Shown: one piece after another, positions 2,330 to 59,165 of the stretch | Numbering within the stretch: the stretch's first letter is position 1 | Layout: the number at the start of each line of letters is the position of its first letter | Source of the DNA: Arion vulgaris | Taxonomy: Eukaryota; Mollusca; Gastropoda; Stylommatophora; Arionidae | Reading direction: 5' to 3' | DNA: 64,000 bases | Assembly: GCA_020796225.1 (NCBI GenBank) | Contig: CM036764.1 | Span: forward strand, 21,280,733-21,344,732 | Program-made: the position numbers and the translations under genes | The notes under the pieces: model-generated | The model's input: the letters and a program-made list of their open reading frames with translations, nothing else | What the model was told of the DNA's origin: nothing | The model's database searches: none

Positions 2330-2600
2330 CAGTGGGTCGAGCTGATATTTTGAACACCCTCATAGAGTATGGCCGTAAAGAAGATTTTCATTTAAATCAA
2401 TTCACGTCGACTACTAGATTGAAGGAGCTGGGTTTGAAGATTGGAGTAGCAAGAAAAGAACAGCATAACAGGTACATGAGTAGGCTCATCAATCAAAATC
2501 GAACTGGTACGGTCAGTTGCTGAACGCTGTTGGAGATATTGCGAAGGAGATCGGAGCACCTATGGACATGTCCGGAGTGCAATGAAGATATTCGAAACTG
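2330..2600 (+). other. conserved peptide-coding repeat P, copy 1 (decayed)
   Basis: A frame from 2332 encodes a segment with TRLKELG, ARKEQH and RLINQNRTG, then hits a stop at about 2521. Just after it, in another frame, comes LRRRSEHLWTCPEC. The same peptide order is found at 56.6 kb and 59.1 kb. Many codon differences between copies are synonymous, so this was once a translated domain. The Cys-Pro-x-Cys pair suggests half of a metal-binding site. I do not recognise the family; it may come from an unidentified mobile element or a host gene family. Confidence 0.5.
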
Positions 2601-2640
2601 AAACTAACATTTTTCAGAGTACAACCATCTAGCTATTATA

Positions 2641-2715
2641 AAACGCTCGTCTGCAGGGCTAGACAATAAGTGCCGTAAGAAATATAGGTTAGGGTTTGAA
2701 TCCTGTTTTGAAAAA
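2641..2715 (+). mobile_element. tRNA-like sequence, family T copy 2
   Basis: The block has CGTCTGCAGGGCTAGACAAT, the shared GTGCCGTAAG core and a B-box-like GGTTTGAATCC. It resembles the reverse-strand copies at 2.3 and 27.1 kb. No acceptor-stem pairing supports a functional gene. Confidence 0.5.
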
Positions 2716-3390
2716 TTATTTCCCCTCAGAGATCCTTCTTTCCACGCTTTAAGCCGCACACTGCGCCACGGCGGAAGTCCGTTGCACGCTATAAGCCGCA
2801 CACTGCGCCATAGAGTTGCTTTCCTTATAAGAAGTCTTTCTTGTTTTACTTCTACTGTTTTACTTCTACTACTTTTCAACCTTGTTATTCTATTAGGTTG
2901 TCCAGTTTTCTTCAATTTAGTATATAATAATAATATATGTTTATTTATTGACGAGTAGTTGGGATCGTTTTATTACAATTTTTTTACTTCCCTTGAATTA
3001 ACTGCTTAAAAATTGAGGAAATACTGCACTTGGAAAGAGTTAATACTTATTTATTGTTTATTTATTTAGACTTGTTTAATGCTTTTTGCCAGATTCACGT
3101 TCATAGTTTGTTATCCATTATTAACATCTTCAGTGGTGCACTATCCTATAGTTAATCATGACTGGGAATAAGGACTACCAAGTGCTAGTTACAACATCTG
3201 AATAATCTCCAAGTTGGAAGCGCATCAATAAAGTGTTTAAAAAACAAAACTGTCATTACTGCCTATAGTACCGCTTTTTAGGGCGGTGTAGGACAGATAG
3301 GACGAGATCCTGAGGAATTTAATGGCCGCATGACTAGTACAGTCGCCGCGAAGCTGTTCAGGTGAGGATTTTTAAATTATGCCCACAACA
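2716..3390. other. unassigned stretch with a short direct repeat
   Basis: The only structure noticed is two copies of a 24-bp block containing TAAGCCGCACACTGCGCCA between about 2748 and 2812. Confidence 0.4.
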
Positions 3391-3392
3391 TA

Positions 3393-3478
3393 AACAAATC
3401 TTTGGCCTTACCGTGAATTGAACACTGGTCTCCAGCATGGGAGCCACGCTCTAATCCATTCGACCAGACGCGCTCCTG
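3393..3478 (-). mobile_element. tRNA-Gly-like sequence, probable SINE head or tRNA pseudogene
   Basis: On the reverse strand the anticodon-arm region (GGCTCCCATGCTGGAGAC) and B box (GTGTTCAATTC) resemble a tRNA-Gly with a CCC-like anticodon. The 5' and 3' acceptor strands do not pair, so it is not called as a working tRNA. Confidence 0.45.
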
Positions 3479-3999
3479 CTGAAAAAATACAAGTGTCGAA
3501 TAAAAAAAATATGACATTTTTTTAAAGGACAGTAACAGGCAAATTGTGTCTTTTCTATTATTTTGCTGTTGCATTTCTTTGCTCTTCTCGTGTTCTCGTT
3601 ACCCCTGAGAAACATGGAATTCTTCATCCAAATGTTCGCTGTTTCTGTAGCCTTCTTATTTTGTTCTTGAAAGGTAGATAGGTCTATCTCAAGCCTTACA
3701 TTAGCAGTATAGATTAACAAGAGAACAACGGACCTAACGGGTTTAGCGACATACAGGCTGCGTTGTGCCGCATAGTGGATGCTTTATCGAGTTAAACTAA
3801 ACTGGCCGATATTGAAGAAGCTCAGTTTGCGCTATAAGTGTTTGTTGCATTGATATTGAATAGGGTCAGTATCACTCTTGCAAATAAATAGTCATAGAAG
3901 ATGATAAAACATGGGAAATGGGGTTATAATTAACTAGATTAGTCAACAGAGAGAACCCATTCAGGCATCACATTTTGTTTAAAGTGCAAAAGCAATATC

Positions 4000-4775
4000 A
4001 GTTCTCTCGCGATAGTTCTGCACTGTTTTACTCACATCGACGTCCCCAAAGAGCGCATATGACAGGGAAACCATAATTTTGCAGTGTGTATACACATCTT
4101 GTATGTACATTGACAGAAGTGTCAGATTAAATATGTTATAAAACATGTAGTTCTTGGTTTTGTCTGATCATTTCTCCGTAGCTCCGCTATAGTTCTGCAC
4201 TGTTTTAGTTCACTATAAGTCCCTTACAGAGCGTACCGTGACAGGAAGATAATTTTTATACATTGACAGAAGTGTCAGATTAAACATGTTTTAAAACACG
4301 TAGCTATTGGTTGATATCTACAGTTCTCCGTAGCTCCGCTATAGTTCTACATTGTTTTACTCACATCGACGTCCCTCACAGAGCGTACTGTGACAGGGAA
4401 AAGATAATTGTATACATTGACAAAAGTGTCAGATTAAACATGTTTTAAAACATGTAGCTATTGGTTGACGTCTAACCAGTTCTCTGTAGCTCCCATGATA
4501 GTTCTACATTGTTTTACTCAATCGAAATCCCTTACAGAGCGTACTGTGACAGGGAAAAGATAATTGTATACATTGACAAAAGTGTCAGATTAAACATGTT
4601 TTAAAACATGTAGCTATTGGTTGACGTCTAACCAGTTCTCTGTAGCTCCCGCGATAGTTCTACATTGTTTTACTCAATCGAAATCCCCCACAGAGCGTAC
4701 TGTGACAGGGAAAAGATAATTGTATACATTGACAGAAGTGTCAGATTAAACATGTTTTAAAACATGTAGTTATTA
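4000..4775. repeat. tandem array, about 155-bp unit, about 5 copies, with palindromes
   Basis: Landmarks such as GTGTCAGATTAAA recur about every 152-156 bp (near 4121, 4273, 4428, 4583 and 4739). Most units carry a perfect palindrome, ACATGTTTTAAAACATGT, just after a smaller inverted repeat, TGACAGAAGTGTCA. The first unit is the most diverged. No coding frame runs through the array. Confidence 0.85.
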
Positions 4776-4977
4776 GATTTATGTCTGAGAGACATTGAGT
4801 AACAGTTGTGTGTGCAACTCATGCTATTAAGCTTTACTGACCTTTTCAAAAACAAAATCGATTTAACATGCAGACATTAAATATGCATGAATTATCTTTG
4901 TGTGGTATCAACATTTCTTTAGCCGATGTAGGAAAATGCCATTTTATGCTGAGTAATATCTGACTTTGTGTTGTATA

Positions 4978-5078
4978 GTCTGTCCATTAATTCGTGAGCA
5001 CGTTTGAAATTGATTTTCTCCAAAACTACCTGTTGGATCTCAGTGAATTTTTGCAAGCAGCCTTAGAATATCCATGAC
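4978..5078 (+). repeat. left terminal inverted repeat of the DD82E element
   Basis: It matches the reverse complement of 7057-7156 with only a few differences (for example CACGTTTG against CACCTTTG). It ends at CCATGAC. Confidence 0.9.
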
Positions 5079-5417
5079 ACTAGAGAAATATTTTTTTCCA
5101 AGAAAATTTGATGTAGTTTGAAATATTTCTTCTTCAGGTTATATTAAAATCAACCTCACCGGATTGTACACAATAGTAACAGATCTACGGTACACAGACG
5201 CGTTGTTCTAAAATACATTATGGTAACATTGAAATATCGTGAGTAAACAATTTCACGAATTTCCGTGCACCTAACCCAGTCGACTTTGAACGCGGAAAGC
5301 ATATGACGTTATAATTGGGATACCGTTGTATAGTTATAGGTGTATCTCGCTATTTGTATGAAGCTATTGTATCATATTTGTTGGCTTATCAAAACTGACA
5401 TTTATATCACATTCATA

Positions 5418-6682
5418 ATGAGTCTGAAGTGCACATTTATAACAATGCAGAAGGTTACAGTTTTACTATACCAACACTTCCGTAGGGAATCTAAGAGAGG
5501 TCATCTATATTGCGATATTCATAACCCTGAGAAACGAACGCAATTGGCGCTTGGTCTGAATAGAGAATCCTTTTCCCGATGGATTAAACAGGACACAAAG
5601 TGCACTAATGTCACGCAAGGAAGGAAAAGAACAATTGACGACTTTGACATAGATGTCATAAGACGGAGCTCTTGAAAATGTTTGCGACAAATCAACTTGT
5701 TACTCTCAGGAAACTGAAATTAAAACTGCAATCAGATTGCAGCATAGACATTTCTAAAAGTACTCTATGGAAAATTGTAAGAGCCGCCGGCTTCACCTTC
5801 AGAAAAACTATAGGCGGCAGGAATATTATTTGTGAAAAACCACATTTAATTGATGCGCGAAGTAAATACCTGAAGCAGATCCTGAGCGGCGGAGGCAAGG
5901 CTATGATATTGTATATTTGGACGAATCCTGGGTCAATGCTCACCACACCAATGCTAAAGAATGGCAATCAGTAGATGGTGAACAGAAAAGAAAAATACCA
6001 AGCAGCAAAGGCCAGCGTATTATACTAACACATGCATGAAGCAGTGAAGAAGGTCTTGTCCATGACGCTGGACTTATTTTCCAATCAAAAAATACCGACG
6101 GTAGGGACTACCACACAGAAATGAATGGACATATTTTCAGGCACTGGATGGAGAAAGATCTACTTCCAATTCTAAACAGACCATCATGCTTGGTAATGGA
6201 TAATGCATCCTATCACAACGCAATATCAGCGGAAGACAAAGTACCAACTGCATCAAATACAAAAGATCAAATTAGGACTTGGCTTGCTAAGGAAAATGTC
6301 AGCTTCGATGATACATATTTGAAACCCGAGTTGTTGCACCTGGTGAGGATGACAAATAAGACAAGGTGTTTATATTGACAAAATCATTGCGGAATACGGC
6401 CACACGTCTTTGCGACTACCTCCATATCATGCTCACCTCAATCCGATAGAGCTTGTCTGGGCTAAAGTAAAAGGGCAAGTTGCCGAACAGAACAGGACGT
6501 TTAAAATGTGTGATGTTGAAGTTCTGACACGTGAGTCCCTCTCAATGATAGACATGCAGTTCTGGAAGAAGTGTGTTGAACATGTGCTCCGAGAGGAAGA
6601 CGAGTACTGGCACCGAGATGGATTACAATTTGTCCAGCCAGTAACAATTATCAACCTCATGGAATCGTCAGATTCGGGATGA
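5418..6682 (+). pseudogene. DD82E transposase, broken
   Basis: This was a cut-and-paste transposase. An N-terminal helix-turn-helix region is followed by a DDE catalytic core: LDESW (Asp codon 5920-5922), VMDNASYH (Asp codon 6199-6201) and HLNPIELVW (Glu codon 6449-6451). The stretch between the second Asp and the Glu is 247 nt, which is 82 codons plus one extra base. That fits the DD82E spacing I recall for the Sailor family. Lesions seen: a frame change near 5672, another near 5900, a TGA at 6037-6039 and a frame change near 6360. The start is uncertain; ATG at 5418 or 5445 are the reasonable choices. The copy cannot make an active enzyme. Confidence 0.88.
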
Positions 6683-7056
6683 TACAAATCATATTTTGAT
6701 TACAGACTGAGAAATAGCAACGTATACATTTCCATATCCAAATGCGTCTACCATCATACAATTTGTGGTGAAGTTAAGACACCCTGGGGTCTAATGGTGA
6801 CCGAAGGGAGGACTAACTGTTGCATATTGTATCCAAGTTCACGATTGCACATAAAGGGCAACACAATTAATTACTTGACCTATCAAGTTAATATGGAGAT
6901 ACACCTATGAATAGAATTGACATGGACAAATTCTATGGATTACTGTAAAATCTAAAATTTGAGCCCCCGTATTTGCAATTGTCATAAAGATCAAAGGAAT
7001 TCGCCGATGTGCAAAATCCGTAACATCTATGAACTATTGGTTAGCTTTATTTTATC

Positions 7057-7156
7057 GTCATGGATATTCTAAGGCTGCATGCAAAAAATCACTGAGATCC
7101 AACAGGTAGTTTTCGAGAAAATCAATTTCAAAGGTGCTCACGAATTAATGGACAGA
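7057..7156 (-). repeat. right terminal inverted repeat of the DD82E element
   Basis: It is the reverse-complement partner of 4978-5078 and is followed by the TA target dinucleotide. Confidence 0.9.
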
Positions 7157-7234
7157 TAGTTCTTTTTTAACAACCATTCGGTAGCAGAATATGTTGTAGT
7201 CAAATATACGACATTTGTCGGTATATCAGTTCAA

Positions 7235-9752: not shown

Positions 9753-9754
9753 TT

Positions 9755-10022: not shown

Positions 10023-10029
10023 GGAGAAA

Positions 10030-11708: not shown

Positions 11709-11710
11709 TT

Positions 11711-17701: not shown

Positions 17702-17798
17702 CGAAACACGTAAACAAAGTACTATAGTTTTACAAAATACAGAAACAGTGACGATAAACAGCAACGTTTCGACCAAAAGGCCTTTATCAAGCAAACGA
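17702..17798 (-). repeat. left inverted terminal repeat of the Penelope-like element
   Basis: It is the near-perfect reverse complement of 18766-18864. A related solo stretch at 26713-26780 suggests the unit extends left to about 17678. Confidence 0.85.
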
Positions 17799-17799
17799 T

Positions 17800-18545
17800 G
17801 TGCTTGATTTCTTCCGCAAGAGCATATACCCGGAGAATGTGCTTGCATCTGCTATGCATCGCGTTCAGCAAATGGCTCGCCAGGAGACTCTTTCTAACCA
17901 GCATAGAGCTTCCAATTCTGACAGGGTGAAACTTATCTTAACTTTCCACCCTCATAGTTCCCTTGTGAAGAAAGTCTTCTTCCGTCATCTCTCTATTCTT
18001 CAGTCTGATCCTGAGACACGTTCAGTCTTCCAACACTATCATTTGGTGGCGTACAGACGGGACAGAAGTCTTAAGGATATGTTGGTTCCCAGTCGCCTCA
18101 AGCCTAATATCCAGTCATTTTGGCACCATCCAGTGTGGCCGTCGGCGCTGCACCACGTGTGCTTATGTAATACAGACCCGCACTGTGCCTTTTCCAAAAG
18201 GCACGATTATTATTGAAGACAGTTTCACGTGCGAGTCTCGTAATATTATCTATGCCATCACCTGCAAGCGGTGCAACAAGGCCTATATTGGTGAGACCGG
18301 CAAGAGGCTCAGTGACCGATTCGCCCAACACTTGCGCGATATACGCCAATGCTCTGTGACCCCTGTAGCTACTCATTTCAATGATACTGGCCATCCAGGA
18401 GCTTGCGATGTCCAGGTCACAGCCATCTGATCATGTTCCTCTGATGATCGTAGTCGATTTGCTCTGGAGAACCGTTTTATTTCGTTGTATGGTACCTTGC
18501 GACCGGTTGGACTCAACGCATTACATTCGTATGCTTCCTAGTACT
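17800..18545 (+). pseudogene. Penelope-like polyprotein remnant with GIY-YIG endonuclease
   Basis: The first frame (17800-18105) covers the linker, including LTFHPHSSLVKKVFFRHL and LVAYRRDRSLKDML. After a frame change near 18110-18180 a second frame gives NIIYAITCKRCNKAYIGETG and RLSDRFAQHLRDI. This is a GIY-YIG nuclease with its upstream zinc-knuckle-like Cys residues and the conserved Arg and His. A further shift near 18430 precedes the C-terminal LGTLRP-like tail. In intact elements this nuclease cuts the target site. This copy has at least two frameshifts. Confidence 0.87.
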
Positions 18546-27189: not shown

Positions 27190-27597
27190 TGACTTATACT
27201 TCGTTGAGTAACTATGTGTGCTCCTATCTCTTTCTTATACAGAAGATCTTAGCTGCAGTACACCAACTTCTTAGCACCGGCGAGGGTTCTCGATATAATT
27301 TTGAAGATATTTTTGTAGGAATTTTATATTTAATCTTTTCTGATGAATTTTACCCGGTCAGCGACTTTCCAGTCTGCTCTTCTCAATTTTGAACTGCCAA
27401 GGGTTTTTTTACTTGCTCAAATTGAACACGGGACCTACGTTTTATCTCCCGTCTCCGATAGGACTAGGAACTCGATATCACCTACATTGAGATCAGGAAT
27501 CTCTGGAAAAATATCCAGATGGCTCCACAATGGAGCGAACCTGGTACATTTGACAATAGAGATGAGCACCTAACCACTACGCCACAGAGATCCCTGG
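27190..27597 (-). mobile_element. tRNA-derived SINE, family F, copy 1
   Basis: In reverse sense the head has a near-consensus A box (TGGCGTAGTGGTTAGG) and a B-box-like GGTTCGCTCC. The body then has TTTTTCCAGAGATTCC, TCGGAGACGGGAGATAAAAC and GACTGGAAAGTCGCTGACC, and the tail ends near ACTCAACGAAG. Copies occur at 33.5-34.1 and 62.0-62.4 kb. Its tRNA end abuts the first unit of the 74-bp array. Confidence 0.8.
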
Positions 27598-33499: not shown

Positions 33500-34085
33500 A
33501 TTCATAGGCAGAGGACTAGAAACTCGATCTCTCCTACACTAAGATCAGGGATCTCTGGAAAAATATCCCGATGGCTCCACGAGACAGATAACAGATGGCT
33601 CCACGAGACAGTGAACTGATGGCTCCACGAGACAGTGAACAGATGGCTCCACGAGACAGTGAACAGATGGCTCCACGAGACAGTGAACAGATGGCTCCAC
33701 GAGACAGTGAACAGATGGCTCCACGAGACAGTGAACAGATGGCTCCACGAGACAGTGAATCGAGTACCTTTGGCACGAGAGTTGAGCACCTAATCTCTAC
33801 GCCAGAGTCCTTCCCATCGGAGACGGGTGATAAAACGTTGGTCCCATGTTCAATTTGTGCACGTAAACGAACCACTGGCAGTTCAAAATCGAGAAGTGCA
33901 GGCTGGAAAGTCGCTGCCCGGGCACAATTCATTAGAAAAAATAAAAATACAATTTCTACAAAATATCTTCGCCGTCTTTATAATTACATCGGGAACCGGT
34001 GCTACGGAGTTCGTGCATTGCAGCTTAGATCTTCGTTGTAAGAACAAGATCGAGCACCATGGTTACTCATCGAAGTGCAAAGCTG
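33500..34085 (+). mobile_element. SINE family F, copy 2, with inverted 5' part
   Basis: Relative to copies 1 and 3, the head and first body block (33500-33810) lie in reverse orientation. The remaining body and tail (33811-34085, with TCGGAGACGGGTGATAAAAC and CATCGAAGTGCAAAGC) lie forward. A 24-bp minisatellite has grown inside the inverted part. The 5' inversion is the pattern expected of twin priming during LINE-driven insertion. Confidence 0.75.
33583..33762. repeat. minisatellite inside SINE F, 24-bp unit, about 7.5 copies
   Basis: ATGGCTCCACGAGACAGTGA plus ACAG repeats perfectly in the centre. The first unit differs. Frames over it encode an eight-residue repeat (MAPRDSEQ), which is not evidence of a gene. 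Confidence 0.93.
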
Positions 34086-34109
34086 ATGGTCCTATCAATC
34101 AAACAACAA

Positions 34110-37100
34110 TCAATCATAGACAGCTTGAAGTATATTTGTAAGACGTGAATATGGAGTTGACAAGTACACATTGTTATATCATTCATAGACAGCTTGAAGT
34201 ATATTTGTAAGACGTGAATATGGAGTTGACAAGTACACATTGTTATATCATTCATAGGCAGCTTGAAGTATATTTGTAAGACGTGAATATGGAGTTGACA
34301 AGTACACATTGTTATATCATTCATAGACAGCTTGAAGTATATTTGTAAGACGTGAATATGGAGTTGACAAGTACACATTGTTATATCATTCATAGACAGC
34401 TTGAAGTATATTTGTAAGACGTGAATATGGAGTTGACAAGTACACATTGTTATATCAATCATAGACAGCTTGAAGTATATTTGTAAGACGTGAATATGGA
34501 GTTGACAAGTACACATTGTTATATCAATCATAGGCAGCTTGAAGTATATTTGTAAGACGTGAATATGGAGTTGACAAGTACACATTGTTATATCATTCAT
34601 AGGCAGCTTGAAGTATATTTGTAAGACGTGAATATGGAGTTGACAAGTACACATTGTTATATCATTCATAGGCAGCTTGAAGTATATTTGTAAGACGTGA
34701 ATATGGAGTTGACAAGTACACATTGTTATATCAATCATAGGCAGCTTGAAGTATATTTGTAAGACGTGAATATGGAGTTGACAAGTACACATTGTTATAT
34801 CATTCATAGGCAGCTTGAAGTATATTTGTAAGACGTGAATATGGAGTTGACAAGTACACATTGTTATATCAATCATAGGCAGCTTGAAGTATATTTGTAA
34901 GACGTGAATATGGAGTTGACAAGTACACATTGTTATATCAATCATAGGCAGCTTGAAGTATATTTGTAAGACGTGAATATGGAGTTGACAAGTACACATT
35001 GTTATATCATTCATAGACAGCTTGAAGTATATTTGTAAGACGTGAATATGGAGTTGACAAGTACACATTGTTATATCATTCATAGGCAGCTTGGAGTATA
35101 TTTGTAAGACGTGAATATGGAGTTGACAAGTACACATTGTTATATCATTCATAGACAGCTTGAAGTATATTTGTAAGACGTGAATATGGAGTTGACAAGT
35201 ACACATTGTTATATCATTCATAGACAGCTTGAAGTATATTTGTAAGACGTGAATATGGAGTTGACAAGTACACATTGTTATATCAATCATAGACAGCTTG
35301 AAGTATATTTGTAAGACGTGAATATGGAGTTGACAAGTACACATTGTTATATCAATCATAGGCAGCTTGAAGTATATTTGTAAGACGTGAATATGGAGTT
35401 GACAAGTACACATTGTTATATCATTCATAGGCAGCTTGAAGTATATTTGTAAGACGTGAATATGGAGTTGACAAGTACACATTGTTATATCAATCATAGG
35501 CAGCTTGAAGTATATTTGTAAGACGTGAATATGGAGTTGACAAGTACACATTGTTATATCATTCATAGGCAGCTTGAAGTATATTTGTAAGACGTGAATA
35601 TGGAGTTGACAAGTACACATTGTTATATCAATCATAGGCAGCTTGAAGTATATTAGTAAGACGTGAATATGGAGTTGACAAGTACACATTGTTATATCAA
35701 TCATAGGCAGCTTGAAGTATATTTGTAAGACGTGAATATGGAGTTGACAAGTACACATTGTTATATCATTCATAGGCAGCTTGAAGTATATTTGTAAGAC
35801 GTGAATATGGAGTTGACAAGTACACATTGTTATATCATTCATAGGCAGCTTGAAGTATATTTGTAAGACGTGAATATGGAGTTGACAAGTACACATTGTT
35901 ATATCATTCATAGACAGCTTGAAGTATATTTGTAAGACGTGAATATGGAGTTGACAAGTACACATTGTTATATCATTCATAGGCAGCTTGAAGTATATTT
36001 GTAAGACGTGAATATGGAGTTGACAAGTACACATTGTTATATCAATCATAGGCAGCTTGAAGTATATTTGTAAGACGTGAATATGGAGTTGACAAGTACA
36101 CATTGTTATATCATTCATAGGCAGCTTGAAGTATATTTGTAAGACGTGAATATGGAGTTGACAAGTACACATTGTTATATCATTCATAGGCAGCTTGAAG
36201 TATATTTGTAAGACGTGAATATGGAGTTGACAAGTACACATTGTTATATCATTCATAGGCAGCTTGAAGTATATTTGTAAGACGTGAATATGGAGTTGAC
36301 AAGTACACATTGTTATATCATTCATAGGCAGCTTGAAGTATATTTGTAAGACGTGAATATGGAGTTGACAAGTACACATTGTTATATCATTCATAGGCAG
36401 CTTGAAGTATATTTGTAAGACGTGAATATGGAGTTGACAAGTACACATTGTTATATCATTCATAGGCAGCTTGAAGTATATTTGTAAGACGTGAATATGG
36501 AGTTGACAAGTACACATTGTTATATCAATCATAGGCAGCTTGAAGTATTTTGTAAGACGTGAATATGGAGTTGACAAGTACAATTGTTATATCATTCATA
36601 GGCAGCTTGAAGTATATTTGTAAGACGTGAATATGGAGTTGACAAGTACACATTGTTATATCATTCATAGGCAGCTTGAAGTATATTTGTAAGACGTGAA
36701 TATGGAGTTGACAAGTACACATTGTTATATCATTCATAGGCAGCTTGAAGTATATTTGTAAGACGTGAATATGGAGTTGACAAGTACACATTGTTATATC
36801 AATCATAGGCAGCTTGAAGTATATTTGTAAGACGTGAATATGGAGTTGACAAGTACACATTGTTATATCATTCATAGGCAGCTTGAAGTATATTTGTAAG
36901 ACGTGAATATGGAGTTGACAAGTACACATTGTTATATCAATCATAGGCAGCTTGAAGTATATTTGTAAGACGTGAATATGGAGTTGACAAGTACACATTG
37001 TTATATCAATCATAGGCAGCTTGAAGTATATTTGTAAGACGTGAATATGGAGTTGACAAGTACACATTGTTATATCATTCATAGGCAGCTTGAAGTATAT

Positions 37101-38246
37101 TTGTAAGACGTGAATATGGAGTTGACAAGTACACATTGTTATATCAATCATAGGCAGCTTGAAGTATATTTGTAAGACGTGAATATGGAGTTGACAAGTA
37201 CACATTGTTATATCATTCATAGGCAGCTTGAAGTATATTTGTAAGACGTGAATATGGAGTTGACAAGTACACATTGTTATATCATTCATAGGCAGCTTGA
37301 AGTATATTTGTAAGACGTGAATATGGAGTTGACAAGTACACATTGTTATATCATTCATAGGCAGCTTGAAGTATATTTGTAAGACGTGAATATGGAGTTG
37401 ACAAGTACACATTGTTATATCATTCATAGGCAGCTTGAAGTATATTTGTAAGACGTGAATATGGAGTTGACAAGTACACATTGTTATATCATTCATAGGC
37501 AGCTTGAAGTATATTTGTAAGACGTGAATATGGAGTTGACAAGTACACATTGTTATATCATTCATAGGCAGCTTGAAGTATATTTGTAAGACGTGAATAT
37601 GGAGTTGACAAGTACACATTGTTATATCAATCATAGGCAGCTTGAAGTATATTTGTAAGACGTGAATATGGAGTTGACAAGTACACATTGTTATATCATT
37701 CATAGGCAGCTTGAAGTATATTTGTAAGACGTGAATATGGAGTTGACAAGTACACATTGTTATATCATTCATAGGCAGCTTGAAGTATATTTGTAAGACG
37801 TGAATATGGAGTTGACAAGTACACATTGTTATATCATTCATAGGCAGCTTGAAGTATATTTGTAAGACGTGAATATGGAGTTGACAAGTACACATTGTTA
37901 TATCAATCATAGGCAGCTTGAAGTATATTTGTAAGACGTGAATATGGAGTTGACAAGTACACATTGTTATATCATTCATAGGCAGCTTGAAGTATATTTG
38001 TAAGACGTGAATATGGAGTTGACAAGTACACATTGTTATATCAATCATAGGCAGCTTGAAGTATATTTGTAAGACGTGAATATGGAGTTGACAAGTACAC
38101 ATTGTTATATCAATCATAGGCAGCTTGAAGTATATTTGTAAGACGTGAATATGGAGTTGACAAGTACACATTGTTATATCATTCATAGGCAGCTTGAAGT
38201 ATATTTGTAAGACGTGAATATGGAGTTGACAAGTACACATTGTTAT
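34110..38246. repeat. satellite-like array, 69-bp unit, about 60 copies
   Basis: The unit contains CAGCTTGAAGTATATTTGTA, AGACGTGAATATGGAGTTGA and CAAGTACACATTGTTATATC. Two positions vary among units: CATTCAT/CAATCAT and TAGACAG/TAGGCAG. The order of these variants repeats about 12 units apart in the left third. One unit at 36540-36590 carries two 2-bp deletions. Reverse-strand frames of 838 and 571 codons (23 residues per unit) are open only because 69 is divisible by three. Confidence 0.96.
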
Positions 38247-38559
38247 TTGCCAATCTTGAATTGTGTATCAAATATATATTGTTACGGATTCGGTAGTATC
38301 CTGTTTTCTTTTTCTTCTGCGTTCTGACTAGATTGGGATTTTGGATTCTCTAATAAAGGCATCCGTCTGCATCAGATTATCAGCCACACCATACAGTTTG
38401 TCTTGGACGATAGTGTTAGTGGGCCACCTCTTTCTTCTCAAGTCTGCATACTGGGGGGGCAGTTCTGTAGGATATAATTCCTATGATTTCTGCTTCCCGT
38501 TTGTGTCGACATCTTCTGGTGCATCTGTTTTCTGCAAGCATTTGTTTCGGGTTAGCATT
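38247..38559. other. unassigned stretch
   Basis: Right flank of the 69-bp array; no feature recognised. Confidence 0.4.
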
Positions 38560-46821: not shown

Positions 46822-47025
46822 TTAATTACAGCTGATGACAGATGTGGGGAAAAAAGAGATTATGAAGAGAATAGCAATAGCCAAAAGTACAGTCAATGTT
46901 ATGAGCATGTTACTATTATTGGTTTTTGAACCGACGTTGTTGCAATCCGGGCAGACCCATATGTGCTCAGTCTCCCCCAACAGATGTCGAAGGGTATGCA
47001 TACTAATTGTTCCATTGCCTAACAT
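46822..47025 (-). other. conserved peptide repeat P, possible copy 4, with hydrophobic tail
   Basis: The 67-codon reverse frame contains TLRHLLGETEHIWVCPDCN, resembling the LLRRRSEHLWTCPEC of copies 1-3. It continues into a strongly hydrophobic stretch (LITLTVLLAIAILFIISFF) that could span a membrane. The similarity is limited to about 18 residues. The N-terminal blocks seen in the other copies are absent. Confidence 0.4.
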
Positions 47026-47084: not shown

Positions 47085-47440
47085 TTTTTGTATGGTTGAG
47101 AAACATGCTTACAGCAACACATCACAGAAAGCTCACCATGTGTGAAATTAAATGCTTGAGGAAGGCAGTGGGAGTCACCAGGAAAGACAGACCACGAAAC
47201 GAGGACATCTGAAGCAGAGTGGGCATAACTTCATGCACAGAATACATGGAAAGACAACAAATGCAGTGGTTTGGACATTTAATGAGAATGAAATACAACC
47301 AACCACCAATAACAGCATAAATAAAAAGAGATTGGGTACTAGAGCAAAGGGAAGACCAAGAAAAAGATGGATAGACGATATAAAGACCACACTACATAAA
47401 CACGGATATAAACCATACTCATGTAAACAATACTCATCTA
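47085..47440 (+). mobile_element. LINE 3' fragment
   Basis: Across frames the translation gives CEIKCLRKAVGVTRKDRPRN, QQMQWFGHLMRMKYNQ and RAKGRPRKRWIDDI. These are the ordered C-terminal motifs of an animal LINE protein, close to the element at 51.6-53.9 kb. Stops and shifts break it. Confidence 0.8.
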
Positions 47441-47639
47441 GCCTAGAACGCAAATTAAAGCTCCCATCCCTACGCTTAACAGCAAGAGTGGGCATCCAAC
47501 TACATCTTCCACCTGGGAATAGACAATAGATAATAGATAGAGAAACAAAGACAATGAACAAGCATTTACAACAACACAGAATTAATGTGCTGACACTAGG
47601 TCGTAGTTCATGAAAGGACAAACAGAAAAACAGTTATAG

Positions 47640-48816: not shown

Positions 48817-48819
48817 GTG

Positions 48820-50065: not shown

Positions 50066-50071
50066 AGGGGG

Positions 50072-51387: not shown

Positions 51388-51619
51388 TGATGATAATATA
51401 CAATGTTTGATGTATTAATGATACTACAGCTAATTAATATTAAAGTTGAGCTATTTTTATTTATATTCCAAACAAGTTAAAGCGCTTTTGTCATGTGTAC
51501 TACATCAGTGCGGTGTGCTATCTGATGTTATCGTAATTAACATTATCAGGAAGTGTCATCATGTTTATTTACTGTAACAGTTGATTTGTCTTCCCTCCAC
51601 ATCCAGTTAATGTATAGTA

Positions 51620-52236
51620 AACACACTGCACACATATAAATACATCTTCTTTTTCTCTTCTTTTGTCGTCACACTGCTACCGGGTTGTTGCCCAGTGTCG
51701 TGGTTTTTTTTTTTGTCTTGCGTTGTTCTGGTGGCTTGTGTGATTGTTATTTTTGCTCTTTCACACGATTCTGCTACGCCATCTAACCATCTTTTCCGTG
51801 GTCTTCCTCTTGCCTTCTTTCCCGATGTTCTGTTGTAGAAGACTCTGTATACTGTGGAGTTTGGATGCATTCTTATTAAGTGGCCAAACCACTTCATTCT
51901 TTGTTTCTCTATGTAATTCAAGCACGGTTTTGTGCCAACTTTCTTTCTTATGCTGATGTTGGTGATTCTGTCTTTTCTTGTGTTGTTGGTAACTTTTCGC
52001 AGGCAACGCATTTCACATGTAGTTATTTTTGTGACTGCGCTTTGCTCAATGTCCATGTTTGGCTCTGGTAACACAAAGTAGGTATAAAAATGCTGTTGAT
52101 CATCTGTTGCTTAGCTGCCTGTGAAATTTTTGGGTACCTTAACAATAGGGCCAGCTGGTAGGTTACAGCATTTGCTTTTTGCACTCTAGCCTCTATCTAG
52201 TCTTCCGTCTTCTGTGAATATGCTTCCTAAGTATTT
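51620..52236 (-). mobile_element. resident LINE, 3' part (interrupted element)
   Basis: In reverse sense it starts at KYLG and gives SIFTEDGRLD, CEMRCLRKVTNNTRKDR, MKWFGHLIRMHP and RGRPRKRWLDGV, ending at about 51620. A 155-codon frame (51607-52074) is intact; one or two frameshifts lie upstream. The matching 5' part is at 53244-53870. The RNase H-bearing fragment separates the two at the KYLG codons. Confidence 0.85.
52226..52236. repeat. target-site duplication, right copy of the nested LINE insertion
   Basis: CCTAAGTATTT; the same 11 bases occur at 53244-53254. Confidence 0.8.
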
Positions 52237-53243
52237 CTTCTTCTTCAGCGATCTCTGGTCATGCGCTTAATTTACTGTGGACCACAAACTGGGCAGACAG
52301 CTTCAGGTCTGTCAGGCTTCCCAAAGCTTAGTTTTCAGGTCGACTGGGTGTGGCCACATGTTGCTTCTCAGCTCACACAGAAGAGGACAGTCTTGCAGGA
52401 TATGCTCTGGTGTCTGTTCTGCCTGCTGACACTGGCAGAGAGCTGTTTGACTTATTCCTAGTCTGTATAAGTGTTTGTTGAGTCTGCAGTGTCCGGTGCG
52501 TAGTCGAAATATAATGACCTGGTCTGTTCTGCTTAGGTCTTTGAGGGAGTCTTTTCCATAATCATATCCAGTGTTTGTCTTCCAGTCTGCTGCAGATTTT
52601 CTCTGTATGAGGGTTTTGACCTCTTGAAAAGACAAGGGTTGGTAAATTTGCTCTTTGGCACTGCCCTCCTTAGCTAAGACATCAGCACTCTCATTGCCTG
52701 CAATGCCACAGTGAGATGGAATCCACTGCAAGTGAATTTCTGCCTTTTCTGAAAGCTGAGCAAGTTCTCTTTTTAGTTTTTTACTGTGCTGTCAGTGGAT
52801 TTAGCCTCCAGGACTTGTATAGCTGACAGTGAGTCTGTAAGAAATACCATCTTGCCTGCAGCTGCTTTCATCTTATTCATGTGCTGTGCTGCCATCAGAA
52901 GGGCTAAGAGTTCTGCTTTGTAGTTGGAACATATTCTTCCAGTAGGGGCCGCTAGAGACACAGTAGTAGCATCTGGGTGCCTAATGTACACTCCTGCTCC
53001 ACCATTCATGGTTGCCTCCATTGCCGATCCATCTGTGTAAATTCTTATTCAGCTGTCTTCTGGAAACATGTAATGGAGATGTTCCATTGTAATTGCTTTT
53101 TCACTAGATTAGGCTCGGCATCTTTGCTTAATAATTTAGGGATGGAGGTTGATAAGTTTAGTGCTACTGAGTCTGGTTCCCAGTGATCAAAAGTAATTCT
53201 TCTGGTATGGACTTATGATTTAGTAGTTCCAAGTATGACTTTC
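52237..53243 (-). mobile_element. 5'-truncated LINE with RNase H domain, inserted into another LINE
   Basis: Reverse-strand frames encode an RNase H: YTDGSA (53022-53042 region), YKAELLALLMA, FLTDSLSAIQVLE and WIPSHCGIAGNESAD, so the acidic residues of the fold are all visible. A Cys-rich tail follows (CQCQQAEQTPEHILQDCP). RNase H after the reverse transcriptase is known in I/Jockey-group LINEs. The 3' end carries GAAGAAGAAG, and 11-bp direct repeats flank the fragment. Frameshifts split the domain near 52770, and upstream near 53040. Confidence 0.87.
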
Positions 53244-53254
53244 CCTAAGTATTT
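53244..53254. repeat. target-site duplication, left copy of the nested LINE insertion
   Basis: CCTAAGTATTT; matches 52226-52236. Confidence 0.8.
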
Positions 53255-53870
53255 GAATTCTTTCACTTGGTTTATTTTAGTGCCATTGGCATGGATGTCT
53301 AGATTATTATGTATTCATTATTTCTGTTTTAGTGTTGTTGATTTTCATGTCATGATTTATACAATTTTTGTTCACGGTGTCAATATGATGTTGTAGATCT
53401 TGTTCATTTTGATGTATCAGGCACTGATCATCTGCAAAAATCAGTTCATTTATTTCATCATTATCTGAATTTGACTCTTGAATTATTTTATCCATATATG
53501 CAATAAAGAGTAGTGGTGAGAGGACACAACCTTGTCTAACACCTGATGTAATGGAGAACCAGTCGGTCATTCCTTCTGTTGTTCTTACTGTACTCTGGCT
53601 ATCTTGATATAAGGCCATGATATTACCTAATAGTTGTCCCTGGACGCCATATTCTTCAAGGATCTTCCATAGTTTGCACCTGTTTACTCTATCAAATGCC
53701 TTTTATTGGTCTATAAATATAAGCTGTTTACTTTGATTGTATTCATTTGTTTGTTCGCAGATCTGTCTTAGTGTAAATATTGCTTCTGTGCAGCTCTTAC
53801 CCCTCCTAAACCCAAACTGGCTATTGCTTTTGCGTTTATTCCCATTTCAGTATTACTATGAGCTCATACT
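53244..53870 (-). mobile_element. resident LINE, reverse transcriptase part
   Basis: In reverse sense: FGFRRGKSCTEAIFTLRQIC, KAFDRVNRCKLWKILEEYG, then GVRQGCVLSPLLF and the catalytic FADD (53428-53439), ending at VKEFKYLG where the insertion begins. These are the palm motifs of an RTE/CR1-like reverse transcriptase. A stop replaces a residue just before KAFDR, and the 5' part beyond 53870 is missing. Confidence 0.88.
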
Positions 53871-53874
53871 ATCA

Positions 53875-54119: not shown

Positions 54120-54184
54120 CCACACTATCACCATTAAAACTTGTATATTGAGAATGTATTCTTGTCCATTGTTGGAGATGGATT

Positions 54185-54408: not shown

Positions 54409-54554
54409 AGAGAGAGAAGAGATTCTTGTCCGGTTCTTTTTAATACCAATTCGAATTATTACTGAAATATAACACTTGTGACTTTTGTCGTATCCTTTAA
54501 TATCAGTCCCCAGCTTTCTTCAGGTATGGCTTAATTTCATCACCTTTCCTGCGC

Positions 54555-54750
54555 GTTTTTTTTTTTTCCCAATCCAGAGCACTGAGCTTTTCAGTCTTCA
54601 GCTCGTGCCATGGACATCGTAACCTCTTTGTTTCGGTGCCACGAACACCTGATCTGGAATCTGTGCCATTTTCTGCCTGCCACTAATGAAACCCGTCACA
54701 CAGAGGGCTGTCCCCAGTCAAGCGCTACGAACACGCTGGGCACGCGGGCT
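54555..54750 (-). mobile_element. SINE family A, copy 4, with poly(A)
   Basis: A reverse copy with CAGCTCGTGCCATGGACATC and ACACGCTGGGCACGC. About 13 T at 54555-54567 form its poly(A) tail. Several small deletions in the head. Confidence 0.78.
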
Positions 54751-54925
54751 TCCCTGCGCGTTTCAAAACAGTTCCTATCTTCTTTCTGTCAAGCTGTCTG
54801 TCTGTCAATCTGTCTATACCAGTCTCGTTTTTCTACACCCAATTGCAACTGATCTATTTCTCTCCTACTCTGCATGTCTGCCTGTCCTTATACATGTATC
54901 AATCTAATTGGTGTTTGTGTATTGT

Positions 54926-54932
<7 letters not shown>

Positions 54933-54961
<29 letters not shown>

Positions 54962-54990
54962 TCTCTCCCCCTCTCTCTTTTCCCTTTCCC
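54933..54990. repeat. (CT)n microsatellite
   Basis: CTCTCT run with a few CCCT interruptions. Confidence 0.92.
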
Positions 54991-55264
54991 CAAGCTTCCT
55001 TGCACATATTCATATTGAACTGATTGCATCATGTCTATGCCTAGCGGCATGTCGCCTACATTCCGTGAAGCAGCACTTGTCCACTTACGAACTTATGAAA
55101 TATCTGTCACAAGTAATTTTGACACTCTCATAACCGTCACAAATTAACTGACAACTGAGTTCCCAAACGAGCGCATTGTCATGTAGGTGCGTTACCTCTC
55201 ACCCCTCCACTTGTGTACTAAACACAGTTCTGAAGCCAACCAACATGGTACTATAGTTATTTGT
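54991..55264. other. unassigned stretch
   Basis: Nothing recognised. Confidence 0.4.
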
Positions 55265-55276
55265 ACATCAATACTT

Positions 55277-55529
55277 GTTCTCTGGGCTAAGTGGTTAAGC
55301 CCTTTGCCTTGTGAGTCGAAGGCCGTGGGTTCGATTCCGGACCGCGCCGTTCTGTTCACGAGTGCAGTATTTTCCAGAGACCCCTAGGATTGTTGCTGGA
55401 GCTACGGAGTTCGTGCTTTGTGCAATACTCAAGGCAGGTGGCTTGCCATTTCTGCGGAGAGGGATCGAGTCATATGGGGGTAAAAACCGGCGCATTGAAG
55501 TCAATCCTTCGGCTTAAAAACCCTTTAAA
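55277..55529 (+). mobile_element. SINE family C, copy 5, young, with 12-bp target duplication
   Basis: The best preserved copy: A-box region CTAAGTGGTTAAGCC, B box GGGTTCGATTCC, full body and the AAAACCCTTTAAA end. ACATCAATACTT flanks both sides (55265-55276 and 55530-55541), a perfect target duplication of the length made by LINE machinery. Confidence 0.92.
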
Positions 55530-55541
55530 ACATCAATACTT

Positions 55542-56189
55542 ATTGAAGATTCGACAGTAGATGACGTACTGATGGTACAACTTGACAAGTACAAACCTAG
55601 GTTTTACAACTGTGATTGGTGGAGTCGAGGGTGTAGGTGGTTTAATAAATTTAGTGCGATGTTTTGTGATGGGTTTAATGGGTGTTTGGGATTGCCTTTA
55701 GTGGAATGTATTGGGATGAGCTTTAGTGGGATGTTTTGACCCAGGAAACAATGCACGCCCAGCTTCTAGTTATGTGATAACGCATTTTGCAAGCAACAAA
55801 ATTAATGGACATTATTCACGCGAGAGGCGATGTGTGTTTAAACCTCTCGGCCACAATATTCTAAGATGGAAACAAAGTCACAGTTACACAGTGACTGCAT
55901 GACTGCCTTTTTGTATACATTTTATAGGAATGTAAAGGGATCTGAATTCTATATAGTTTGAGAACTACGACCAAAGTCATAATAATAACACTCGATGAAA
56001 GGCGTTATTCATAAATAAATAACAGCTTGACCGATTAAGACATTGTTGAACATATTTGCTGAATAGAAGCCACATTGTTATGTGTTTGAACTATTTACGA
56101 GCTGACTAATATGTCAATATATTTGTGTAACGCTGGTGAAGACAGCACACTCATACGATCAGACATAATTGTCGCGATGACAGCATCGT
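55542..56189. other. unassigned stretch
   Basis: A G/T-rich irregular repeat (TTTAGTGGGATGTTTTG-like) lies around 55650-55740. Otherwise nothing recognised. Confidence 0.4.
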
Positions 56190-56560
56190 GCATTGTTGTG
56201 AGACAGTTGGGTAATCTTTCTGCGATGTTGTTGCCTGACTGTCATATAGACTTTGCTGCTTTGTATACATTCATCATAAGCTTGTTGCCAATATGGAAGC
56301 AATGGATCTCATTGTGTACTGGCATGGGGTCTGATTGTGTGCTCACAGGGGTCTCATATTGTTGTGAGACAGTTGGGCAAATCTTTTGCGATGTTGTTGC
56401 CTGACTGTCATATAGACTTTGTGTTTGTATACATTCATCATAAGCTTGTTGCTAATATGGAAGCAATGGATCTCATGATGTGCTGGCAGGGGTCTCAATG
56501 TATGCTGACAGGGGGTCTCAGATGTGTTTGGCAGGGGGTCTCAATGTGTGTCAAAGATAC
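56190..56560. repeat. direct repeat, about 165-bp unit, 2 copies plus short remnants
   Basis: Blocks with GTTGTGAGACAGTTGGG, TTGTTGCCTGACTGTCATAT and CATTCATCATAAGCTTGTTG occur twice. They are followed by several short AGGGGGTCTCA-type pieces. Confidence 0.8.
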
Positions 56561-56579
56561 GCAATATATCACAACGTCT

Positions 56580-56935
56580 TAGTGACATTCTTCACGCATT
56601 GAGAGTCTTTCCGGACAGAGGAGTTTCAGGGCTGTGAATCCCACTCGCTGACCAGATTGAAAGAGATGGGTGTCCGTATTGGTGCAGCCCGAAAGGAACG
56701 ACATACTAAATATGCAAAGAGATTGATTAATCAACATCGAACTGGCGTGTTGGGTCGCTGGACGCTGCTGGATTTGCTGAGGCGGAGATCAGAGCACCTA
56801 TGGACATTTCCGGAGTGCTATGATGATAGTCCTCTAATAACTGATAGTCGCTGGACATTGTTGGAGATATTGTGAAGGAGATCGGAGCACCTCTGGTCAT
56901 ACTCGTAGTGCAATGAAGATATTCCAAACAGAAAT
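56580..56935 (+). other. conserved peptide-coding repeat P, copy 2
   Basis: The translation gives SHSLTRLKEMGVRIG, AARKERHTKYAKRLINQHRT, RWTLLDLLRRRSEHLWTFPE, then a second, decayed module (RWTLLEIL, stop, RRSEHLW). The repeated module suggests the parent protein had tandem Cys-Pro-x-Cys units. The first Cys of the first module is replaced (TFPEC). The family is unrecognised. Confidence 0.55.
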
Positions 56936-57589
56936 TGATACAGATATATCGGAAGATAATAAGAAAGGAATAAATAGAAGTGTAAATTGGTTATCACACA
57001 CCCAATGTTAATCATGGCAAGTTTAAAAACCAGTATATGTCAAGTGTCAGTGGAATTGATCGATACCGAACTATAATTGGAAGACAATTGTGAGACATTT
57101 GTTGACACATTCATCGTTCCGTCTTAGCAAAAATTATAAGTGTTAAGAGGTTGACCTGTCAGGGTGACACATTGTCACGCCCAGGAAAGTTTCCCGCCAG
57201 GTCATACTGTATAACCTTTTGAAGTTTGACCTGTATTGTTGTTCCATAAAGTGATGAAACTATTTGATAAGGTCATACGATAGGAAGAATTCCACTGTGA
57301 TTGAATCTATGTTTACTTTTAGTCCTGGATACGTGCGTGTTAATTATGTTTGTGATTTTAGTTATCATTGAGAGAGACAGAGAGTGTGGAATTTGCTGTC
57401 ATGTCATAACATTGATGATGACATGTGTCTTGTGATCTGTCAAATATTGTTCTCATTCGTTCGCTGTATTATTGTTACAACCAAACGGCTGCTGTCACAA
57501 TCACTGCCATTATTTCTATTATCATTGCCACCATCACCACCACTACCACCTTTAATATCAACATTAGCATCATCGTTGTTCATTATCAG
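56936..57589. other. unassigned stretch
   Basis: ATCACCACCACTACC-type simple sequence lies near 57500-57570. Nothing else recognised. Confidence 0.4.
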
Positions 57590-58330
57590 GTGCCTTGCCG
57601 GCTGACGTAGGCGATCATGGATCTCCACAAATCTCTATCTTTGGTTTAAAGGGGTTTTAAGTGTTTGCTATCAATTCAGATGTTGACGCTCTACTGTGCC
57701 ATGAAGTCAGGCTATCCCAAATTTTCTCTGTCTTCCTCTGTCTCGTCTACCCTCGATTTTACTAGTTGTTACAAACCTCCCCTCCTCATCAAATGTCCGA
57801 AAAATAATGACTTATTGATAATAAGTTTTGTCTGTGTCTTGACCTCATTCAACACCTCAACATTAGAGATTTTAGCAGTCCATGGAATTCTCATTATTCT
57901 TCTGTAAAATCACATCTCTGTGTCCTCTAGAGCTTTTTCGATCTGTTTGTTTATTGTCCATGACTGGCATCCGTATGTCAGTATTGGTTCTAAATAGCAC
58001 TGAATAACTCGCATTCTGACCTCAACTGACAAGGACGTGTTGCATATGATACATCTCATTTTCATGAACGATGTTTTCGTTTGCCCTATTCTGCTCTTTA
58101 TTTCAGATCGGCATCTGCCATCTGATGTTACCAGGACTCGAAGTATTTAAATTTGCTGCACTTGTCTTAGCTCTCCTTCTAAAATGGTGCATTTTGTCAA
58201 AGTCTGCTTTTGATATGATCATAACTTCTGTCTTCTTAATATTCAAACTGGGTCCTTTGTAATACTTTCTGTCACAACCTTATCAATTCATTTATGGAGC
58301 AGCTACATTTCATTTCTTGCTATTAAAAAA
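57590..58330 (-). mobile_element. LINE 3' fragment, same family as 62.9-63.4 kb
   Basis: In reverse sense: CYLEPILTYGCQSWTINKQI, RRIMRIPWTAKISNVEVLNE, a His-Leu-Met-Arg-Arg block, the VDETEEDREN region and a terminal block, PKIEICGDP. The order matches the plus-strand copy at 62.9 kb. Stops occur in at least three places. Confidence 0.78.
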
Positions 58331-58877
58331 TGAACCATGAAGTTAATCATCATCATTATTATCATCATTATTAAGGGGATCTTTGTAGCACCAGGTTAAC
58401 ACCAGCCATGAACGTTTGCAAATACAGTACGAATATGCTGTTACTGATGTTTTTCTACCTATGGTATCCCACTTCAGTGTATCTTATACTTTAAGGCTAA
58501 TCGTTCTTTATTTATGTTCTCTTTGATTTTTGTTTAAAATAGAACTTCAACATCAGAATTAACTCTGAGTCTGAGACTATGTTATACTTCTAGACTATGT
58601 TATACTTCTAGACTTTTGACTTTAGCTTTATTTGGTCTTTTTTGTTTTTTTAAATCGAGACACTAGGTCTTTTAATTAATGGGCACGCATCTGATTTTGT
58701 AGTTAATGCAACATCATTTTGAAGTGATGCGGGTGGTAATTAATAGCTGTCCAACGCAGACGATGACGACAGCCTCAGACGTGTTACTGTAGTTGTCTGA
58801 AGCTGTAACTTGTACTGTATTTAGATTTAAGTGAGGAAAAGTTACACTGTTCGTCAACCTCACTCTCTCGTCCAGGA
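58331..58877. other. unassigned stretch
   Basis: An (ATC)n-like run lies near 58340-58375. Nothing else recognised. Confidence 0.4.
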
Positions 58878-58879
58878 CT

Positions 58880-59165
58880 ATCTTATCCAGTTATCAGTTA
58901 TATGAGGACTATCATCATAGCACTTCGGACATGTCCATAGGTGCTCCGATCTCCGCCTCAGCAAATCCAGCAGCATCCAGTGGCCCAACACGCCAGTTCG
59001 ATGTTGATTAATCAATCTCTTTGCATAATTAGTATGTCGTTCTTTTCGGGCTGCACCAATATTGACACCCATCTCTTTCAATCTGGTCAGCAAGTGGGAT
59101 TCACAGCCCTGAAACTCCTCTGTTCGAAAAGACTCTCTCAATGCGTGAAGAATATCTTATCCAGG
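58880..59165 (-). other. conserved peptide-coding repeat P, copy 3 (best preserved)
   Basis: An open 87-codon reverse frame (58878-59141) contains FRTEEFQGCESHLLTRLKEM, RKERHTNYAKRLINQHRTG and LLRRRSEHLWTCPKC. It continues upstream to an in-frame DILHAL. No stop interrupts the domain. The metal-ligand-like pair is intact, but only one Cys-x-x-Cys is present, so a partner site would be needed. The family is unrecognised. Confidence 0.6.

What the first reader, a model, noticed from the sequence alone, without database searches (positions are those of the whole stretch)
2330..59165. Unknown conserved peptide family P (four loci) with a Trp-x-Cys-Pro-x-Cys motif
Three loci (2.3, 56.6 and 59.1 kb) encode the same ordered blocks: TRLKE-x-G, ARKE-x-H, RLINQ-x-RTG, then LLRRRSEHLWTCPEC. 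A fourth (46.8 kb) shares only the last block. Comparing copies 1 and 2 codon by codon in the TRLKE to RTG stretch, about half of the changed codons are synonymous, which suggests the sequence was selected as protein. Copy 2 has the last module twice. I cannot place it in any named family. It may be an undescribed mobile-element protein or a dispersed gene family.
Basis: partly seen in the sequence, partly recalled or inferred. Interest (0 to 1): 0.75.

Follow-up and report, generated by a model that had tools for sequence, protein, structure and literature searches.

The report
Coding 3' end of a LINE
The puzzling peptide is the tail end of the copying enzyme of a very abundant jumping gene (a LINE), and its most conserved stretch looks like an RNA signal, shared with a short parasitic element, that happens to lie inside the enzyme's last codons.

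Summary
In detail: four loci, ordered blocks, 11 of 21 changed codons synonymous, last module twice in copy 2. It is not an orphan gene family. The blocks are the C-terminal tail of ORF2 of a non-LTR retrotransposon (LINE): reverse transcriptase, RNase H (Pfam E 5e-13), then this tail. Copies share one 3' end, are ragged at the 5' end, carry target-site duplications and end in short tandem repeats holding the stop codon. The WTCPEC block has 13,693 exact matches in the 1.52-Gb host genome (20 for the reversed control). Copy 4 is a distant branch of the same group. Purifying selection between subfamilies is clear (dN/dS 0.15).

The last block behaves differently: 82-95% DNA identity among three subfamilies against 59-64% upstream, no synonymous change in 11 codons (A against B), and persistence in another frame in subfamily C. 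It also resembles the 3' end of a tRNA-headed SINE, with three copies in this window. I propose it is mainly the RNA tail that the LINE enzyme recognises, overlapping coding sequence; a hairpin is suggested, not proven. The LINE is of a known kind (I superfamily, probably Ingi, clade untested); the coding 3' signal is a new variant.

The parts
2313..2605 (+). Copy 1: 3' fragment of the LINE, subfamily A (C-terminal tail of ORF2; one in-frame stop)
   Evidence: 86-90% DNA identity over 290-300 nt to L001, L004, L005, L006; tblastn to RNase-H relatives
56584..56846 (+). Copy 2: 3' fragment, subfamily B (frame broken; WTFPEC)
56846..56934 (+). Second 'last module' of copy 2: 3' fragment of subfamily A abutting the end of the B fragment
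   Evidence: 85% over 89 nt to copy 1; model hit 56877-56918
58891..59152 (-). Copy 3: 3' fragment, subfamily B; ends in its tail repeat
58879..58890 (-). 3' target-site duplication of copy 3 (CTGGATAAGATA)
59153..59164 (-). 5' target-site duplication of copy 3 (CTGGATAAGATA)
46932..47018 (-). Copy 4: short 3' fragment of a distant branch (D) of the same LINE group
   Evidence: 16 of 30 columns identical to P0018; a sister copy in L060
2546..2587 (+). Conserved 3' block (proposed RNA recognition hairpin) in copy 1
   Evidence: 63.3 bits (same letters as row A of the model)
56784..56825 (+). Conserved 3' block in copy 2
   Evidence: 56.3 bits
58913..58954 (-). Conserved 3' block in copy 3
   Evidence: 64.0 bits
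46935..46976 (-). Conserved 3' block in copy 4
   Evidence: 53.2 bits (copy 4 is one of the eight sequences the model was built from)
27198..27590 (-). tRNA-headed SINE of the family whose 3' end resembles the LINE block (this copy's own 3' end is decayed and was not found by the model)
   Evidence: 86% to the SINE consensus over 403 nt; A and B boxes; candidate 8-bp duplication ATTTATCT
33812..34080 (+). SINE of the same family, lacking its head
   Evidence: 86% over 279 nt
62050..62426 (+). Older SINE copy of the same family
   Evidence: 74% over 388 nt; its 3' end also gave a weak peptide match at 62375-62434 (E 0.089)

Best explanation
The peptide family is the C-terminal tail of ORF2 (reverse transcriptase, RNase H, helical tail) of an abundant RNase-H-bearing LINE group of the I superfamily, probably Ingi. 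The copies here are 5'-truncated insertions made by target-primed reverse transcription (inferred from anatomy). In subfamilies A and B the 3' UTR is absent or nearly so: ORF2 runs into the terminal tandem repeat, which supplies the stop codon (seen in sequence). The last coding block (RSEHLWTCPEC and a few nucleotides after it) doubles as the RNA tail signal, probably a hairpin, that the enzyme recognises to start copying (inferred). A tRNA-headed SINE carries a similar 3' end without coding it and so can borrow the enzyme (inferred). Shown: LINE anatomy, protein-level selection, excess nucleotide conservation of the block, shift of frame, resemblance of the SINE end. Not shown: binding, the hairpin in RNA, mobilisation of the SINE.
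For: RNase H upstream in frame: PF00075 E 5.9e-13 and 5.2e-13; reverse transcriptase PF00078 E 6.6e-6 and 5.8e-5 in pieces of L049, both under Pfam's curated cutoff. 67 protein relatives, 62 of them with PF00075; 21 of 22 aligned rows end within 15 residues of the block's Trp. 53 of 55 motif-anchored sequences fall in one family with a shared 3' end and variable 5' truncation. Target-site duplications in 34 copies (those of the 46 A/B sequences whose 5' end lay in the fetched piece): mean longest shared word 6.97 against 4.62 (sd 0.22) when flanks are re-paired, 0 of 300 as high; 17 of 34 have 7 nt or more. Protein selection: dN/dS 0.15 between consensuses A and B; single copies against their own consensus 0.55-0.59, with 29 and 36 stop changes. 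Block: A/B 95%, A/C and B/C 82.5% identity (40 columns) against 59-64% upstream; the only three of 199 13-codon windows without synonymous change lie there, while outside the block pS is 0.71. Frame: subfamily C reads TGGACTAATTTGTTCGACGTGC, losing CPEC but keeping most nucleotides; the pattern written for it has 6,433 matches (control 0), all but nine of the listed places being the longer C form; 11 of 22 aligned relatives lack W-x-C-P-x-C. SINE: its consensus aligns with LINE B at both 3' ends, score 39 against a maximum of 28 in 1,000 base shuffles, and with A 35 against 32; a covariance model made from LINE sequences only found the 3' ends of 6 of the 10 SINE copies in the sources searched (E 1.5e-5 to 0.27), and nothing at E up to 5 in 256,531 bases of control DNA. 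Pairing: with SINE rows added, the covariation score was reached by 4 of 500 and 0 of 500 shuffles.
Against: The hairpin is not proven: single strands fold no better than shuffles (z -0.3 to -0.8); on eight LINE sequences alone covariation is not significant (69 of 500); the structure was drawn from these sequences; shuffles ignore relatedness; the number of pairs with double changes is not unusual in any count (86 of 500, 249 of 500), only pair 21/30 showing repeated double changes, and the neighbouring pair 19/32 is broken in 4 of 13 rows. The model missed 4 of 10 SINE copies searched, including all three of this window. Against subfamily C the SINE score is weaker (26; 5 of 1,000 shuffles as high), and those shuffles kept base composition only. 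With a sequence-only profile single SINE copies are marginal (best 0.0052 and 0.0078; ten random sequences gave bests from 0.0094 to 5.5). Recombination or conversion of 3' ends among subfamilies could also lower synonymous change. The clade (Ingi) was not tested. Apart from the window's own three, copies were sampled by the motif itself on one contig; the 5' part of each consensus rests on 7-8 copies and C is a single copy.
Confidence: 0.7

Rival explanations
1. Ordinary LINE ORF2 tail: the block is conserved only because the last residues (a possible zinc-binding C-x2-C) matter for the protein; the SINE likeness and low synonymous change come from chance or from exchange of 3' ends between subfamilies.
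For: W-x-C-P-x-C recurs in 11 of 22 aligned relatives. Protein selection is clear.
Against: The other 11 rows end differently, among them five with FDVQ and four with AFPSATMPS, and C keeps the nucleotides in another frame. In the predicted structure residues 302-311 are below pLDDT 50 and 291-300, which hold WTCPE, average 54, so there is no confident zinc fold. The SINE consensus does not code for it: 4, 7 and 12 stops in its three frames, longest open stretch 79 codons.
Confidence: 0.22
2. Undescribed host gene family or domesticated exon.
For: dN/dS 0.15 between subfamily consensuses.
Against: More than 13,000 motif matches, common 3' end with ragged 5' ends, target-site duplications, RT and RNase H upstream.
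Confidence: 0.02
3. The block is purely a SINE or MITE sequence without coding history, and the reading frame is accidental.
For: Copy 1 lies between inverted arms; a SINE carries a similar block.
Against: Subfamily consensuses are open over 211 codons and join RNase H in frame; 67 protein relatives.
Confidence: 0.02

Closest known systems
Ingi clade of the I superfamily of non-LTR retrotransposons (in molluscs)
   Same: RT followed by RNase H; PMC10294476 (passages read) reports Nimb and Ingi as the only named I-superfamily clades across molluscs, and PMC11203168 (passages read) reports large numbers of Ingi in several gastropods; one relative is from the land snail Bradybaena similaris (57% identity).
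Stringent LINE/SINE pairs (zebrafish L2 elements; PMC4176376, outline and abstract read)
   Same: A 3' tail stem-loop is recognised by ORF2; that a SINE with the same tail can use the enzyme is recalled general knowledge.
   Different: Those belong to the L2 clade, and the PMC5135761 abstract (start seen in a search listing only) places the stem-loop of stringent LINEs in the 3' UTR. Here the element overlaps the last codons of ORF2 in an RNase-H LINE; binding is untested.
The other RNase-H LINE of this window (52312-53702, minus strand)
   Same: RT (PF00078 E 3.9e-22) and RNase H (E 3.4e-7).
   Different: Its tail has FRLRTGH and CxC...EHxxxxC; zf-RVT is matched only weakly (E 0.0068, below cutoff).

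Membership tests
Non-LTR retrotransposon (LINE) | Reverse transcriptase in ORF2 | tested here: met
   PF00078 E 6.6e-6 and 5.8e-5; both pieces are partial and under the curated cutoff
Non-LTR retrotransposon (LINE) | Common 3' end, ragged 5' ends, variable target-site duplications | tested here: met
I superfamily | RNase H domain after RT (typical of this superfamily from recall; not exclusive) | tested here: met
   PF00075 E 5.2e-13; fold search best hit an E. coli RNase HI variant, E 4.2e-8
I superfamily, Ingi clade | RT groups with Ingi in phylogeny | not tested
   no labelled reference RTs in the tools; inferred from two papers
I superfamily | Upstream endonuclease and ORF1 | not tested
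   no intact full-length copy was read; both elements in L049 are interrupted
Zinc knuckle at the ORF2 C-terminus | Recognisable zinc-binding motif | tested here: inconclusive
   only C-x2-C; no zinc family for the copy 3 peptide, and for copy 4 only matches below cutoff (Zn_ribbon_LapB E 0.043, zf-UBP E 0.098); low pLDDT at the end
tRNA-derived SINE (element G) | A and B boxes in a tRNA-like head | tested here: met
   A box and B box in order in the consensus and in 1 of 6 copies tested (the window copy at 27198-27590); 1 chance match per Mb of random sequence; the other five copies miss the strict pattern. My first A-box pattern was mis-spaced and found none. ARAGORN: no tRNA in the window, and at a lowered threshold only implausible calls on the consensus
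Stringent LINE/SINE pair | Shared 3' tail | tested here: met
   A and B: 0 of 1,000 base shuffles as high; weaker for C, 5 of 1,000; 6 of 10 SINE copies found by the LINE-only model, 4 missed
Stringent LINE/SINE pair | ORF2 binds the tail and mobilises the SINE | not testable with these tools
   needs experiment

The most novel reading that the evidence does not exclude
A LINE group in which the RNA tail recognised by the reverse transcriptase is written inside the last codons of ORF2, with the stop codon supplied by the tail repeat, so that the RNA signal constrains the protein end; lineages have changed reading frame across it while keeping the RNA, and a tRNA SINE has captured the signal.
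Probability: 0.53. Interest if true: 0.6.

Novelty: new variant of a known kind. Interest (0 to 1): 0.42.

Why it matters
It turns an orphan peptide into a known kind of element, and shows how a conserved 'protein motif' can be an RNA signal read in codons. If right, it offers a LINE/SINE pair in an RNase-H LINE where RNA recognition and protein sequence must coevolve, which can be tested by codon changes that separate the two. In the listings of eight searches (two of them returned no paper) I saw no report of a LINE whose 3' recognition element lies in ORF2; the library lacks most subscription journals.

Tried and rejected
Pfam and solved-structure search with the 76-aa peptide alone gave nothing usable (Myc-LZ E 0.05; TAF3 and KDM2A at E 0.7-2.1). 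Viral contigs: no relative with the single peptide; four RNase H loci with alignment A1 at 26-30% identity. Prokaryote contigs: 70 loci, of which L066 (38% over 289 residues, in a bacterial MAG record) looks like a eukaryotic contaminant, an inference not followed up; most others match the RNase H part only. TIR element as the carrier of the peptide: rejected, since no arms of 12 nt or more flank copies 2 and 3 in the stretches tested. Host exon: rejected by ragged 5' ends. Hairpin from single-strand folding: not supported; from eight LINE sequences: not significant. The probability printed at the end applies to a 13-codon block that in fact holds three synonymous changes, in its first two Arg codons, so I do not use it. 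Target duplication for copy 4: none convincing; for copy 2 only a 7-nt word not abutting the start. SINE duplications: best words of 6-8 nt in four copies, no control run. Unbiased genome-wide sets of SINE and D-branch copies could not be had: the search machine was busy.

Full report
What was checked. The translations at the four loci were read directly. Copies 1 to 3 hold the ordered blocks. Copies 2 and 3 are 93% identical in DNA and copy 1 is about 72% identical to each. Between copies 1 and 2, 21 of 32 codons in the TRLKE to RTG stretch differ, 11 synonymously. The second 'last module' of copy 2 is a fragment of copy 1's subfamily placed directly after the first.

What it is. The window lies in an unnamed 1.52-Gb genome. 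The pattern for the WTCPEC block has 13,693 exact matches there, against 20 for the reversed pattern. Of 55 motif-anchored sequences (52 from one contig, two of them identical neighbours, and 3 from the window), 53 fall in one family with a shared 3' end and variable 5' truncation; the other two, both from L029, belong to another branch. Longer copies read upstream, in frame, into RNase H and, in locus L049, into reverse transcriptase pieces. Sixty-seven proteins match the 311-residue query, 62 of them with the RNase H family; 21 of 22 aligned rows end within 15 residues of the block's Trp. Target-site duplications are significant over 34 copies; copy 3 has a 12-nt duplication, CTGGATAAGATA. 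So the family is the C-terminal tail of ORF2 of a LINE with RNase H.

Ends. In subfamily B the last residues run into (TGATAAC)n and in subfamily A into (CTGAAA)n, and the stop codon TGA lies in that repeat (L043 shows several repeats, many copies only one or two). The one copy of subfamily C read ends in (CTAAA)n. There is thus no 3' UTR to speak of in A and B.

Selection. Subfamily consensuses A and B over 211 codons give dN 0.28 and dS 1.87 (near saturation), ratio 0.15; the tail alone gives 0.26. The 5' part of each consensus rests on 7 or 8 copies. Single copies against their own consensus give 0.55 to 0.59, with 29 and 36 stop changes in 24 and 24 copies, as expected of dead copies from a selected source.

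The last block. Upstream of it A, B and C share 59-64% of bases; within it 82-95%. The only three of 199 13-codon windows without synonymous change lie there. In subfamily C the sequence after TGGAC is longer and the reading frame shifts, so CPEC is lost while most nucleotides remain; the pattern written for it has 3,242 + 3,191 matches against 0, and all but nine of the listed places have the longer C form. Of 22 aligned relatives 11 lack W-x-C-P-x-C. A covariance model built from eight LINE 3' ends found, besides LINE copies, ends of a different repeat. That repeat is about 400 nt, has a tRNA-like head, a body, and the similar 3' end followed by (ATCA)n; A and B boxes in order are present in its consensus and in 1 of 6 copies tested. 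It is a SINE, with copies at 27198-27590, 33812-34080 and 62050-62426. Its consensus aligns with LINE A and B at the 3' ends better than 1,000 base shuffles; C is weaker, 5 of 1,000 as high. The model found 6 of the 10 SINE copies in the sources searched and missed 4, including the three of this window. It found nothing in 256,531 bases from 43 of the 74 viral and prokaryote loci held. A sequence-only profile shows single SINE ends as marginal: 0.0052 and 0.0078 for the best two, against bests of 0.0094 to 5.5 in ten random sequences.

Hairpin. The drawn structure is AUCG/UGAU, GCAC/GUGC and UGGA/UCCG. Single strands do not fold better than shuffles. On eight LINE sequences the covariation score is not significant (69 of 500 shuffles). 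With a SINE row it is 4 of 500 (majority row) or 6 of 500 (another typed row), and with five SINE copies 0 of 500, but related rows inflate this test and the number of doubly changed pairs is not unusual (86, 91 and 249 of 500). The innermost pair is A-U in six of the eight LINE rows, G-C in copy 4, G-U in a sister of copy 4, and U-A in four of five SINE copies. I treat the hairpin as likely but unproven.

Structure. A five-model prediction on 51 aligned sequences (mean pLDDT 81) gives an RNase H fold and a helical tail; residues 302-311 are below 50 and 291-300 average 54. The best fold matches are RNase HI and the RNase H domains of reverse transcriptases. There is no confident zinc fold at WTCPEC.

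Mechanism proposed. ORF2 protein binds the 3' end of its own RNA, at the block and the tail repeats, and primes copying at the nick; the SINE carries a similar tail and borrows the enzyme. Precedent: stem-loop recognition by ORF2 in zebrafish L2 elements (PMC4176376, outline and abstract read). Anatomy and conservation are shown; binding and borrowing are inferred.

Classification. RNase H after RT is typical of the I superfamily (recalled). In molluscs Nimb and Ingi are the only named clades of that superfamily reported (PMC10294476, passages), and Ingi is frequent in several gastropods (PMC11203168, passages). The host is probably a mollusc, judged from a 57% identical relative in Bradybaena similaris, and the window's other RNase-H LINE looks unlike it. 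Ingi is thus my guess, not a result.

Noticed in passing
window 2257-2312 and 2642-2697: Inverted arms (56 nt, 79%) enclose copy 1, so a LINE fragment seems to lie inside a MITE-like element.
   Followed up: partly
window 33963-38267: 69-bp tandem array of about 61 copies, open on the minus strand for 839 and 580 codons; it begins next to a SINE copy.
   Followed up: no
L029:993-1261; L056:4389-4662; G000 C1:11644950-11645155: The last module of the LINE or SINE occurs two to five times in short succession at several places (units of about 57 or 88 nt in two of them), recalling the doubled module of copy 2; perhaps template jumping or slippage.
   Followed up: partly
window 52312-53702 (-): A second RNase-H LINE with a conventional tail (FRLRTGH, CxC..EHxxxxC).
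   Followed up: partly
window 17758-18430 (+): ORFs resembling the GIY-YIG end of a Penelope-like element (judged by eye).
   Followed up: no
window 5340-6378 (+): ORF pieces that look like a DDE transposase (judged by eye).
   Followed up: no
window 47152-47529 (+) and 51607-52110 (-): LINE C-terminal remnants of another type (GRPRKRW motif, judged by eye).
   Followed up: no
L066:2790-3659: A relative (38% over 289 residues) in a bacterial MAG record (Ekhidna sp.), probably eukaryotic contamination.
   Followed up: no
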